DNA of 26,468 nucleotides from a virus. Within the stretch, counting starts at the first letter, position 1; every line of letters begins with the position of its first letter. The notes beneath the pieces were generated by a model. That model searched no databases. It was not told where the DNA came from and saw nothing but the letters and a program-made list of their open reading frames with translations. Shown here one piece after another: positions 1 through 13,116 of this stretch. Made by a program: the position numbers and the translations under genes. The stretch lies in IMG/VR virus record IMGVR_UViG_3300022538_000905, positions 1-26,468 of that record. One strand, written 5' to 3'.

Positions 1-25
1 GGAAGTAAAGTAAAAGGAGAGAGAA

Positions 26-271
26 ATGCCTAACGAAACCAGGGAATTTAAGGCAGAAGATATTGGCAGTATTAACCTGACGGAAGAAGCATCTCTAAGG
101 GTGAGTATTGTTAATGATGAGTATTTGAATATCAGAATATGGGTTGAATCAGAAAGGTATACTGGGCCGACCAAAAAAGGGATTTACTTTTCTTTATCCG
201 ATGACACTTGGGTACAGTTCAAAGAACTGATGGAGAAGGTTGATAAAAAGCATGAAGAGTTGGTGTCTTAG
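26..271 (+). CDS. hypothetical protein, 81 aa
   Basis: An acidic 81-residue protein. The start is well supported: an AAAGGAGAGAG ribosome binding site lies just upstream of the ATG. The middle reads as alternating beta strands (residues about 24-55) followed by a C-terminal helix rich in Lys and Glu. There is no signal peptide, membrane segment or cysteine. It is the first complete gene of the early plus-strand region, and its stop precedes a promoter for the RNA at 328. I do not recognise a family. Confidence 0.7.
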   Translation: MPNETREFKAEDIGSINLTEEASLRVSIVNDEYLNIRIWVESERYTGPTKKGIYFSLSDDTWVQFKELMEKVDKKHEELVS

Positions 272-293
272 GGTTTTGGTAATACAGAGGGAC

Positions 294-324
294 TTGACAA
301 AATGCTAGATTATGCTAGTATACT
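294..324 (+). promoter_or_regulatory. sigma-70-type promoter for guide-RNA-like locus 1
   Basis: A perfect -35 TTGACA (294-299) is followed 16 bases later by TGC-TAGTAT (-10 at 316-321, with an extended TGn), overlapping an alternative TATACT at 319-324. It sits directly after the stop of the 26-271 gene and before the RNA-like repeat, not before a convincing ORF. The TGC-TA extended -10 recurs at 11407 and 14355, ahead of the two other RNA loci. Confidence 0.6.
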
Positions 325-327
325 TGA

Positions 328-504
328 GGAGCATCGAATGAGCTTCTATAACATCCTCAACAATGTGGTAAAGCTCTTACTACCTAAGAGAGAAAGAACC
401 ATCAGGCCCGGGCAGGGCCTTCAGGAAACTGAGAATCCCCTTCCCCTTTTGGGGAATGTTAATTCGACTCTTGGGGAATGTCAAGCTCCTCAGGTATACC
501 TCTA
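328..504 (+). ncRNA. structured RNA with TnpB omega/reRNA-like 3' scaffold, copy 1
   Basis: Seen: a promoter at 294 is followed by consecutive hairpins. H1 is CUCUUA/UAAGAG (374-379/385-390, loop CUACC). A conserved purine-rich strand follows (391-404). H2 is GGCCC/GGGCC (405-409/415-419). H3 is CAG-GAAA-CUG (422-431). H4 pairs CCCC at 437-440 with GGGG at 473-476 around an inner CCCC-UUUU-GGGG hairpin. The locus ends GGGGAAUGUC-AA (473-484). Bases 386-424 are identical to 11541-11579, and CTGAGAATCCCC (429-440) is also shared. Known: IS200/IS605 right ends, which template TnpB guide RNAs, typically read GAATCCC...GGGGAG.GTCAA, with the guide immediately downstream. Inference: bases from about 485 (GCTCCTCAGGTATACC) would be the guide. 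No tnpB lies nearby. The 170-aa ORF across this locus is probably spurious. Exact ends are unknown. Confidence 0.65.
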
Positions 505-847
505 TAAAATGGAGAGGTTCATTGCATTAACCGGTTATGCTCCTCAAGCCCTAGTGTCAGGGATTGGCCTGGTTCCGGGGCGCAATATTTTATGTAAACT
601 TGCCAACAACTCGCCACTAGCTCACCATACAAGAGATAAATTAGGGTGCTGTATTATCTCTTATCGGAACATAATCACGTCTTTCCCGAGACGAGAAGAC
701 CGCAATTTTCTCTCAAACCTAAAGCTATTCTTAAATAGAGGCACTCCTACCCCACTCACAAACTTACACTTAACTAACTTGTATAGGTTATTTATCTTAA
801 TTTTGCTACCCTGAGGGTGACATAAAATCTACCTTAGGGGGTGTAAA
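505..847 (+). other. gene-free stretch with several hairpins
   Basis: No convincing gene is present. A long open frame runs through but has no ribosome binding site and overlaps the RNA-like locus. The stretch contains local dyads: AAGAGATAA/TTATCTCTT (631-639/654-662, 9 bp perfect), GTCTT/AAGAC near 680-701, CCCT/AGGG near 550-563, and ACCC-TGA-GGGT near 809-819. It could be the 3' part of a longer RNA, or the decayed remainder of a transposon. Nothing here decides between these. Confidence 0.4.
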
Positions 848-9610: not shown

Positions 9611-9826
9611 TCAACTTGACAAAACTGTAATTATGTCCAGCCAAAGGTAAAAGTTCCATAATCCTAAGAATATGAGGAAACAAACTTCAACAAATATTTT
9701 AGCTGCATTAAGATATGATGGTATATTCTCCCGCCAGCGAGCAGGAGAAGGCAAGCTCGTACCTGCTGTTCCAGCACTCTCCTTGGCCATCTTAACAAAC
9801 CCATCCCAATTATCGTAGATGCCCAT
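9611..9826 (-). CDS. small membrane protein, 71 aa
   Basis: The ATG overlaps the protease stop (TAATG), behind a strong TTGGAGGAATA site. The first 40 residues are polar; residues ~43-68 (IFVEVCFLIFLGLWNFYLWLDI) form one membrane span. Its coupling to the secreted protease suggests a joint function, such as an anchor or partner. Alternatively it is a holin-like protein. Confidence 0.55.
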   Translation of the reverse strand: MGIYDNWDGFVKMAKESAGTAGTSLPSPARWRENIPSYLNAAKIFVEVCFLIFLGLWNFYLWLDIITVLSS

Positions 9827-10368
9827 TATTCCTCCAAAAACATTTTGATTGTCTTAGCGGGTATTGCCGTCAGCAGCCAGTCACCCATTCTGGTTGAGCC
9901 ATAACCACTCCTGACTATCCCAAGTAGTCTTCCCCTTCTATCAAAAACACCACCCCCAGAGCTTCCAGCAATTACCTTTGCATCCACCAGTAACCATTTC
10001 TCAGTAATACCTGCTATCCTACCAAACACAACAATATCCTCATAGTAACCCCCTGGAGCAGATATAACATAAACACGTTCACCAAGCTTGGGATTTAGCC
10101 TGAGCTTCGCATACTCGTGCTTACCTTCAACCTTTATTAAAGCCATGTCTAACGTTACGTGCCGTTTCATTATGCTTCCAATAGCCTTCTTTCCATCGAT
10201 TCTAAGTGCTGGCTTGTCAGTAAACCTAACCACATGATTCGCTGTGATTATCATGCTTTCCCCAATAAATACTCCAGAGCCACTATCTACAACAACCACA
10301 GACTTAGCTTGTAGAAGATTTAGGAATATTACCAATGAGCTAACACCAATTAAAAGTCTTTTCATCAT
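9826..10368 (-). CDS. secreted trypsin-like (S1/DegP-type) serine protease
   Basis: About 180 aa from the ATG at 10368 (an in-frame TTG lies at 10374). It opens with a signal peptide or anchor (MMKRLLIGVSSLVIFLNLLQA). The triad is clear: His45 in ITANHVV, Asp74 in TLDMALI and Ser137 in AGSSGGG. LLGIVRSGYG follows as the usual substrate-pocket strand. The length equals a bare protease domain; there is no PDZ. It should act outside the cytoplasm. In phage context it could degrade envelope or surface proteins at lysis, or alter the lysogen surface. It is co-translated with the 71-aa membrane protein downstream, and two operator-like dyads lie in front of it. Confidence 0.8.
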   Translation of the reverse strand: MMKRLLIGVSSLVIFLNLLQAKSVVVVDSGSGVFIGESMIITANHVVRFTDKPALRIDGKKAIGSIMKRHVTLDMALIKVEGKHEYAKLRLNPKLGERVYVISAPGGYYEDIVVFGRIAGITEKWLLVDAKVIAGSSGGGVFDRRGRLLGIVRSGYGSTRMGDWLLTAIPAKTIKMFLEE

Positions 10369-10383
10369 GTTCAAGCTCTCTTT

Positions 10384-11366: not shown

Positions 11367-11384
11367 TTTTTTTCTCCTTTTATA

Positions 11385-11412
11385 TTGACTTTTTAAAACT
11401 TTTTGCTATACT
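11385..11412 (+). promoter_or_regulatory. sigma-70-type promoter for guide-RNA-like locus 2
   Basis: TTGACT (11385-11390), a 16-base spacer and TATACT (11407-11412) with an extended TGC before the -10. It faces right, away from the 11151-11366 gene, and the only thing downstream on that strand is the structured RNA. Confidence 0.65.
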
Positions 11413-11417
11413 TAAAA

Positions 11418-11642
11418 CAATACGCCGGATAATAAAGCTGAAAGGCTGAGAGTGCTATCAGCGTTCTCCGGGGCCGGCTCTTTGAAATCAAAAGTAGAAG
11501 GTTCCGGCAGAAAGGCTGCCGGGTAAAACTTTTGCCACCCAAGAGAGAAAGAACCATCAGGCCCGGGCAGGGCCTTCAGCTTCGGCTGAGAATCCCCCGA
11601 CTTTAGTTGTGGGGAGCGTCAAATTGACATTTTCCTTAATGT
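11418..11642 (+). ncRNA. structured RNA with TnpB omega/reRNA-like 3' scaffold, copy 2
   Basis: From the promoter, in order: a composite stem CCGGA/UCCGG enclosing GCUGA/UCAGC; CAAAAGU/ACUUUUG enclosing the 7-bp hairpin CCGGCAG/CUGCCGG; H1 CUUUUG/CAAGAG (11529-11534/11540-11545, loop CCACC); the conserved strand; H2 GGCCC/GGGCC (11560-11564/11570-11574); H3 CAGC-UUCG-GCUG (11577-11588); H4 CCCC..GGGG (11594-11597/11611-11614, 8 bp with one bulge); then GGGGAGCGUC-AA (11611-11622). H1 and CAAAAGU/ACUUUUG share bases and are alternatives. Bases 11541-11579 equal 386-424. The 3' half matches the usual IS200/IS605 right-end pattern. The presumed guide would begin near 11623 and runs antisense into the 3' end of the 11619-12059 gene. 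A perfect TTGACATT/AATGTCAA dyad (11624-11645) lies there. The 3' end is unknown. Confidence 0.7.
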
Positions 11643-12059
11643 CAACGAAACTCCGAACCACCATTCATCTTGTGACCAGTAAAATCCCAGGGGAAACCGC
11701 TCTAAAAGTTTCCCAGGCATCTGAATCTCCAAGCCCCAAAACACATAACGTGGCTTGTTATTCACAAATCTTGCCCCACCAACAAGGTTGACTCTCTTAT
11801 GAAGAAAGCCCTCCATTAGTGTCAGTCCAAATCCCGATGAGCCATTTTGATTTTCTTTATTCCACATTACAGTAGGTTTCCCAGTTTTAAGTAGTTGCAT
11901 CAAAACAGTCAGTCCATAGTCTATTCCCTCGTAAGTATATTCAAGGACATTTACTGGTCGCTTTTTGATTTTCTCTGAAAGCTCTCCCGCCCAAGCAGAC
12001 GAACCAAACAGACCTATGATTAGCAACACCGTTATCAAAATTGGATATTCTTTCCTCAT
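11619..12059 (-). CDS. secreted, probable outer-membrane beta-barrel-like protein
   Basis: A 146-aa protein with a textbook Sec signal peptide (ILITVLLIIGLFGSSAWA, cleavage probable after residue ~24). The mature part alternates polar and aromatic/hydrophobic residues with Gly and Trp (LVGGARFVNN..., YVFWGLEIQ, LGFYWSQDEWWFGVSLTL), as in short outer-membrane strands. This implies a diderm host. Phage-encoded outer-membrane proteins can change surface receptors or exclude superinfection. The stop codon lies inside the GTCAA end of the opposing RNA (11619-11621), so the two transcription units overlap tail to tail. Start: the ATG at 12059 just follows the subtilase gene end region. Confidence 0.55.
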   Translation of the reverse strand: MRKEYPILITVLLIIGLFGSSAWAGELSEKIKKRPVNVLEYTYEGIDYGLTVLMQLLKTGKPTVMWNKENQNGSSGFGLTLMEGFLHKRVNLVGGARFVNNKPRYVFWGLEIQMPGKLLERFPLGFYWSQDEWWFGVSLTLRKMSI

Positions 12060-12063
12060 TTAA

Positions 12064-13116
12064 TTACCCTCCTTCAGTTCTATATTCCTCATCGCCTATA
12101 TAGTAGGCAGCTATGAACATGGCCAGACTCATTAGCCAATTCATATCCAGTTTCAAACTAACTTTTTCCAATAGCATAAATTCATGCACAGCGACTGAAC
12201 CCCAGCCACTATCAGGCTGCCATCCAGTGTTTCCAATATCTTCTGAAGTGAACACAAATCGAATAATAGCCTCAGTAAGACTTAGGGCGTGCTCTTGCTC
12301 TTCCAATGATAGAACACCAGCCGCCATTGGACTGGCCATACTAGTACCGCTTACCTTGGCATATTCGTCATTCAGCCAGCACCCAAGTAAATCTACTCCT
12401 GGAGCCATCACTACAAGTCTAGGGCCAAAATTACTCCAATCCGGTCTTTCTCCCTTTTCGTCAATAGCTCCTATAGCGAGGGTATGCTTATCATTAGCTG
12501 GGAAGAACAACAGATCCCCTGCATTCCCTCCAGCACAGACTACGATGATTCCCTTATCAGCCATCCTCTTCAAAATGGGCTGAATCCTGTCACCACTATA
12601 ATCTCCCCCAGCACTGATATTAACTACTTCACACTCTTCCTGCTCGGCCCATAACAGTCCCTTCTCTAGCCAACTCCAATCTCCCGAACCATCATCTCCC
12701 AGAATCTTCGCAATATAGAGTTTACATTTCGGAGCAATCCCTTTGAACCTTCCATCAGCACCAATACAACCCGTTACCCAAGTGCTATGTCCATTACTAT
12801 CTTCAACAGGGTCATCACTGAAATTAACTGACTTTTCAACTACGATGTCCTCATGAACAGGCAGTCCGGTATCCAGCACTGCAACCCGCACACTCTTGCC
12901 TGTAATTCCCTTTTCCCATATTTCCTTGATCCTCATGCGCCTGATGCCCCAGTTAGAAAGCTCTTCCTCTGCAAGCATCATTGGCACTTTCTCCACCCTG
13001 TAGGGTGGCAGGTGAAACTTGTCTTTTTTCATTTTACTTTTTTCCTCCTCGGTAAAACTTGCTTCCTGAGTAAAAGTTTTCTGACTATCTCCTCGGATAA
13101 AAAATCTCTTAGACAA
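12064..13116 (-). CDS. subtilisin-family (S8) serine protease
   Basis: 350 aa from a TTG at 13116, five bases after GGAG. The catalytic triad is Asp82 (VAVLDTG), His110 (NGHSTWVTG) and Ser259 (GTSMASPMAAG). The oxyanion Asn is Asn198 (AGGNAGD). The first ~70 residues resemble a short propeptide, and there is no signal peptide. A hydrophobic segment near the C-terminus (MNWLMSLAMFIAAYYIG) could anchor it in a membrane. Phage subtilases are rare. Possible roles are cleaving host surface or S-layer proteins, processing virion proteins, or promoting lysis. It is the second serine protease in this window. The gene is followed at 4-base spacing by the outer-membrane-like gene, indicating one operon. 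Confidence 0.85.
   Translation of the reverse strand: MSKRFFIRGDSQKTFTQEASFTEEEKSKMKKDKFHLPPYRVEKVPMMLAEEELSNWGIRRMRIKEIWEKGITGKSVRVAVLDTGLPVHEDIVVEKSVNFSDDPVEDSNGHSTWVTGCIGADGRFKGIAPKCKLYIAKILGDDGSGDWSWLEKGLLWAEQEECEVVNISAGGDYSGDRIQPILKRMADKGIIVVCAGGNAGDLLFFPANDKHTLAIGAIDEKGERPDWSNFGPRLVVMAPGVDLLGCWLNDEYAKVSGTSMASPMAAGVLSLEEQEHALSLTEAIIRFVFTSEDIGNTGWQPDSGWGSVAVHEFMLLEKVSLKLDMNWLMSLAMFIAAYYIGDEEYRTEGG

What the first reader, a model, noticed from the sequence alone, without database searches (positions are those of the whole stretch)
11418..11642. Second guide-RNA-like gene, antisense to the end of an outer-membrane-like gene
The same 39-base core (11541-11579) and scaffold recur 11 kb away with a different upstream half, its own TTGACT-16-TATACT promoter and a different presumed guide starting near 11623. 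Two copies with different guide regions are expected for a multi-target guide system and not for a single transposon relic. The guide region is antisense to the last codons of the 11619-12059 gene and contains a perfect TTGACATT/AATGTCAA dyad.
Basis: partly seen in the sequence, partly recalled or inferred. Interest (0 to 1): 0.85.

Follow-up and report, generated by a model that had tools for sequence, protein, structure and literature searches.

The report
Transposon-end insertion in a phage
The supposed second guide-RNA gene is a 239-base leftover of an IS200/IS605-type jumping gene that landed at the very end of a phage gene; it keeps the transposon's guide-RNA-like end but no nuclease, and its 'guide' is just the neighbouring phage gene, so it is mostly ordinary.

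Summary
A 58-nt stretch is 91% identical (39 nt perfect) between 367-424 and 11522-11579, and the promoter, dyad and antisense position are all present.

A model built from nine right ends (RE) of tnpB-bearing IS200/IS605 elements, none from this phage, finds copy 2 at 11585-11626 (44.1 bits, E 1.6e-12) and copy 1 second (E 0.013). Copy 2 parses as a 239-bp element, 11384-11622: TTAT before its left end, TCAA closing its right end. Joining the two flanks gives a gap-free match to a related phage (L010) without the element.

The 'guide' from 11623 is native coding sequence of the 146-aa gene. The insertion leaves that protein unchanged (...LTLRKMSI*). The dyad is not conserved in the relative. 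No TnpB was found in this 26-kb record, the near-identical 40-kb phage G001, or the relative G002.

Best reading: an ends-only (PATE-like) IS200/IS605 insertion carrying an omega-RNA-like 3' end. It could load a host TnpB, but nothing shows it is a dedicated guide gene. Copy 1 is a related fragment inside a separate conserved non-coding region of this phage group, which may be the more interesting lead.

The parts
11380..11383 (+). TTAT, presumed left cleavage/target site (and TAM) retained 5' of the element
   Evidence: Sequence; TTAT is the most frequent left-end cleavage motif among 39 tnpB-containing IS elements (PMC9956272)
11384..11622 (+). 239-bp ends-only IS200/IS605-type element (copy 2). 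A 6-bp repeat ATTGAC at both junctions allows the boundaries to shift by up to 6
   Evidence: Joined flanks align gap-free with empty-site relative L010; TTAT/TCAA parse
11385..11412 (+). predicted promoter TTGACT-16-TATACT inside the left end
   Evidence: 0.5 expected in shuffles; inference only
11424..11470 (+). nested imperfect palindrome CCGGA..GCTGA..TCAGC..TCCGG in the left half
   Evidence: weak
11522..11579 (+). 58-nt core shared with copy 1 (39 nt perfect at 11541-11579)
11569..11622 (+). right end: hairpin, GAAT guide motif, CCCCCGAC/GTTG-T-GGGG stem, ends at TCAA
   Evidence: covariance model of nine tnpB-adjacent right ends, E 1.6e-12 at 11585-11626
11623..11638 (+). presumed guide, ATTGACATTTTCCTTA = antisense of the 3' end of the 146-aa gene
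   Evidence: no other target with fewer than 4/16 mismatches in the window or G001
11619..12059 (-). 146-aa gene whose stop codon is now supplied by the right end; protein unchanged
   Evidence: filled and joined alleles both end ...LTLRKMSI*
367..484 (+). copy 1: related core plus right-end-like hairpin with a tandem 22-nt duplication (441-484)
   Evidence: model rank 2, E 0.013 at 428-466

Best explanation
Bases 11384-11622 are a non-autonomous, ends-only (PATE/MITE-like) IS200/IS605-family element inserted between TTAT and the last codons of the phage's 146-aa gene. Shown: the right end belongs to the class found at the 3' end of tnpB genes; the insertion junction; the protein-neutral effect; no tnpB found in the phage records. 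Inferred: it arrived as single-stranded DNA moved in trans by a Y1 transposase (TnpA) supplied by a host element, after internal deletion of tnpA/tnpB. If transcribed from its left-end promoter it would give an RNA ending in an omega-RNA-like 3' scaffold, followed by whatever flank it landed in. A compatible host TnpB could load that RNA and cut the empty allele TTTTAT|ATTGACATTTTCC, which favours element retention. That last step is the generic TnpB behaviour, not something shown here.
For: Independent right-end model hits copy 2 with E 1.6e-12, best in the window, and copy 1 second. The same right-end motif lies 3' of (or overlapping the end of) annotated tnpB or OrfB_IS605 genes in Bifidobacterium, Peptoclostridium, Mycolicibacterium, Natronomonas, Acidithiobacillus, Megamonas, Geobacillus virus E3, Nodularia phage kac65, and a Finegoldia gene with a sub-threshold OrfB_IS605 match. 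Gap-free empty-site alignment to L010. TTAT/TCAA are the commonest left/right cleavage motifs, and GAAT/TCAA are the right guide/cleavage motifs of IS608. Both alleles encode the same 146-aa protein. G001, 99.98-99.99% identical elsewhere, has contig ends at 11379 and 11653, bracketing the element. A 271-nt PATE-like IS605 element built the same way is described in Halanaerobium (PMC7290912). Orphan right ends without an annotated tnpB occur in other phages.
Against: No full-length parent IS was found in viral, species-genome, plasmid or phage collections. The left-end palindrome is weak and AT-rich. The 54-codon open frame across the core has no TnpB match in Pfam or NCBIfam. Left-flank homology to L010 across the junction is short (about 13 nt, partly a ribosome-binding site). 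The 6-bp ATTGAC repeat could also be read as a target duplication, which Y1 elements do not make.
Confidence: 0.87

Rival explanations
1. A dedicated phage guide RNA (exapted omega-RNA) that uses a host TnpB or TldR in trans to cut or repress chosen targets, with copies 1 and 2 as two guides.
For: Omega-RNA-like 3' end with a flanking guide, predicted promoter, some structure, two copies with different flanks. Phage-encoded TnpB-derived RNA-guided regulators (TldR) are known (PMC13418256).
Against: The guide is native flanking coding sequence with no other target below 4/16 mismatches in the window or G001. No nuclease/TldR gene found in the phage records. Absent in relative G002. No conservation of scaffold with changing guide was found.
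Confidence: 0.08
2. A phage small-RNA gene duplicated within the phage from the copy-1 non-coding RNA, unrelated in function to transposons.
For: Both loci have a sigma-70-like promoter with a 16-nt spacer and a TG before the -10 box, and share the 58-nt core.
Against: Copy 2's right end matches tnpB right ends at E 1.6e-12, and the copy-1 locus in relatives L018/L019 lacks the core, so the core looks like the guest, not the original RNA.
Confidence: 0.05

Closest known systems
PATE / ends-only IS200/IS605 derivatives (e.g. the 271-nt element of Halanaerobium hydrogeniformans, PMC7290912)
   Same: Short element keeping a left-end piece, little or no ORF, and the complete right end; no terminal inverted repeats
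   Different: 239 bp, in a phage; left-end hairpin weak; parent IS not identified
TnpB omega-RNA (reRNA) of IS200/IS605 and IS1341-type elements
   Same: Right-end hairpin with GAAT before the stem and a TCAA end; the flank would act as guide
   Different: No tnpB found in the phage records; transcription and processing untested
Orphan right end in Nodularia phage vB_NspS-kac68v161 (L021 1997-2038)
   Same: Same right-end hairpin, no annotated tnpB nearby, antisense to the end of a gene (XRE regulator)
   Different: Upstream scaffold has no evident sequence similarity

Membership tests
IS200/IS605 ends-only element (PATE) | Right end of the tnpB-element type (subterminal hairpin, GAAT, TCAA end) | tested here: met
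   Model built without window sequence: 44.1 bits, E 1.6e-12
IS200/IS605 ends-only element (PATE) | Insertion precisely 3' of a short target motif, empty site restored by joining flanks | tested here: met
   TTAT before, TCAA at end (motif frequencies PMC9956272); joined flanks gap-free with L010; left homology is short
IS200/IS605 ends-only element (PATE) | Left-end imperfect palindrome | tested here: inconclusive
   AT-rich 11-pair fold at the tip, z -1.8 for 96 nt
IS200/IS605 ends-only element (PATE) | Related autonomous element that can move it in trans | tested here: inconclusive
   None found in the collections scanned; host unknown
TnpB omega-RNA | Linked tnpB | tested here: not met
   No PF07282 match in G000, G001, G002
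TnpB omega-RNA | Transcribed and bound by TnpB, cuts a target next to its TAM | not testable with these tools
   Needs RNA-seq and cleavage assay
TldR guide RNA | Adjacent catalytically dead TnpB homologue in the phage | tested here: not met
   No PF07282-type gene in the records; no protein near 11.4 kb resembling TnpB

The most novel reading that the evidence does not exclude
The phage carries TnpB-less omega-RNAs that borrow a host TnpB to cut empty-allele sibling phages, a nuclease-free homing system. Filled genomes would be immune because TTAT is replaced by TCAA next to the guide.
Probability: 0.07. Interest if true: 0.7.

Novelty: new member of a known kind. Interest (0 to 1): 0.27.

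Why it matters
It turns an apparent multi-guide system into a documented phage insertion of a transposon end, with a defined junction and a protein-neutral landing site. It also shows that guide-RNA-like ends without a linked nuclease recur in phages, so finding such scaffolds should not by itself be taken as evidence of a phage RNA-guided system.

Tried and rejected
Rfam: no family. Search for the parent IS by exact core, relaxed core, left end and peptide in viral, species-genome, plasmid and phage collections: only G001 copy 1, one archaeal right-end-like site (L012) and no parent. Idea that the 54-codon frame over the core is a tnpB tail: open in both copies and 4 of 5 differences fall in one codon position, but there is no HMM match, and 4 of 5 is not significant; left open. 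Idea that guide 1 (485-500) targets its own promoter (14/16): equally explained as the RNA's terminal stem, and the neighbouring motif is CGAT, not TTAT. Host not identified.

Full report
What is there. The window is an IMG/VR virus record of 26,468 bases. The 58-nt repeat (367-424 and 11522-11579, 91%, 39 nt perfect) is real and is the best direct repeat in the window. RNA from 11418-11642 folds somewhat better than shuffles (z -2.9).

What it is. Short blastn matches to the 3' end of copy 2 fell next to tnpB genes in plasmids, so I collected nine right ends lying at the 3' end of tnpB-family genes in bacteria, an archaeon and two phages. The Finegoldia gene is only a sub-threshold OrfB_IS605 match; the other eight are annotated. 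I built a covariance model from these nine, with no window sequence. In the window its best match is 11585-11626 (44.1 bits, E 1.6e-12) and its second is copy 1 at 428-466 (15.4 bits, E 0.013); the third is at noise level (E 0.67). E-values from this short calibration are rough. Copy 2 therefore ends in an IS200/IS605-type right end: GAAT, hairpin, TCAA. GAAT and TCAA are the right guide and cleavage motifs of IS608 (PMC5934647). Among 39 tnpB-containing IS elements, TCAA and TTAT are the most frequent right and left cleavage motifs (PMC9956272). In the window, TTAT is at 11380-11383 and TCAA at 11619-11622, giving a 239-bp element.

Empty site. A related phage (L010, in G002) encodes an 81% identical 146-aa protein and has no element. 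Joining the window flanks at 11383/11623 gives a gap-free alignment to L010 across the junction (CTCCTTTTATATT..CATTTT.CTTAATG). The right flank is solid: about 75% identity over 1.4 kb up to 11628. The left homology at the junction is short, about 13 nt, and includes a ribosome-binding site, because the next gene differs in L010. Both the filled allele and the joined allele encode the same protein ending LTLRKMSI*: the reverse complement of TCAA supplies the last base of the isoleucine codon and a TGA stop. The near-identical phage G001 (99.98-99.99% over 25.9 kb) has contig ends at window 11379 and 11653, on either side of the element, and no element sequence except the copy-1 core. G001 cannot say filled or empty, but an assembly break exactly here is what a polymorphic or multicopy mobile element would cause (inference).

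The 'guide'. Bases from 11623 are the native 3' end of the 146-aa gene in antisense. The TTGACATT/AATGTCAA dyad is part of that coding sequence and is not conserved in L010. No other site in the window or G001 matches the 16-nt guide with fewer than 4 mismatches. No PF07282 (TnpB) match exists in G000, G001 or G002, though the records may be incomplete.

How it most likely works. Shown: a transposon-type right end, a defined junction, a neutral landing site, no linked nuclease found. Inferred: an internally deleted IS200/IS605 element moved in trans by a Y1 transposase. The construction matches the 271-nt PATE-like element of Halanaerobium, which keeps 28 nt of left end, the last 58 nt of tnpB and the whole right end (PMC7290912). 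If transcribed, its RNA could be used by a compatible TnpB against the empty allele; that is generic TnpB behaviour and untested here.

Known versus new. Orphan right ends without an annotated tnpB nearby occur in other phages and plasmids: Nodularia phage kac68v161 (antisense to the end of an XRE gene, the same arrangement), mycobacteriophage SG4, Gordonia phage Powerball, and a Nostoc plasmid. This is a new member of a known kind.

Copy 1. It lies inside a separate region, window about 318-830, that is conserved in L018 and L019 with the same promoter context and a 37-nt block (AAATTAGGGTGCTGTATTATCTCTTATCGGAACATAA) almost invariant, while those relatives lack the core. The 5' stem CTTGAGGAGC/GCTCCTCAAG of the window corresponds to CCGAGGAG/CTCCTCGG in L019, two compensatory changes read by eye. 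RNAalifold on three sequences gave only a modest covariation term and a different 5' pairing. Rfam and the phage collection have no match. This candidate RNA deserves its own study.

Noticed in passing
window 318-830; L018 2283-2725; L019 2268-2845: Candidate conserved structured non-coding RNA of this phage group: promoter, 5' terminal stem with apparent compensatory changes, variable insert, and a nearly invariant 37-nt block; no Rfam match. RNA 318-500 folds with z -6.0.
   Followed up: partly
L028 1796-1837 (mycobacteriophage SG4), L029 1797-1835 (Gordonia phage Powerball), L021 1997-2038 (Nodularia phage kac68v161), L023 1796-1837 (Nostoc plasmid): tnpB-type right ends with no annotated tnpB nearby; the SG4 motif is also hit in mycobacteriophages Enby and Lorde. 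Orphan omega-RNA-like ends in phages may be common.
   Followed up: partly
window 1-306 versus G001 11074 onward: Two phages 99.98% identical elsewhere diverge abruptly at the copy-1 promoter; L018 carries a related promoter twice, so recombination between repeated promoters may reshuffle this region.
   Followed up: partly
window 441-484: Tandem 22-nt repeat (82%) TTCCCCTTTTGGGGAATGTTAA/TTCGACTCTTGGGGAATGTCAA at copy 1's right-end-like hairpin.
   Followed up: no
L008 2300-2500 (Ligilactobacillus salivarius plasmid): CRISPR-like direct repeats (TTCTGAACCTA..GTTAA..CATAGGTGTAAGAC) between two tnpB-family genes, possibly a type V-like locus.
   Followed up: no
window 9826-10374 and 12064-13116: The phage encodes a trypsin-like protease with a signal-like N-terminus and a subtilase-family protease.
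   Followed up: no
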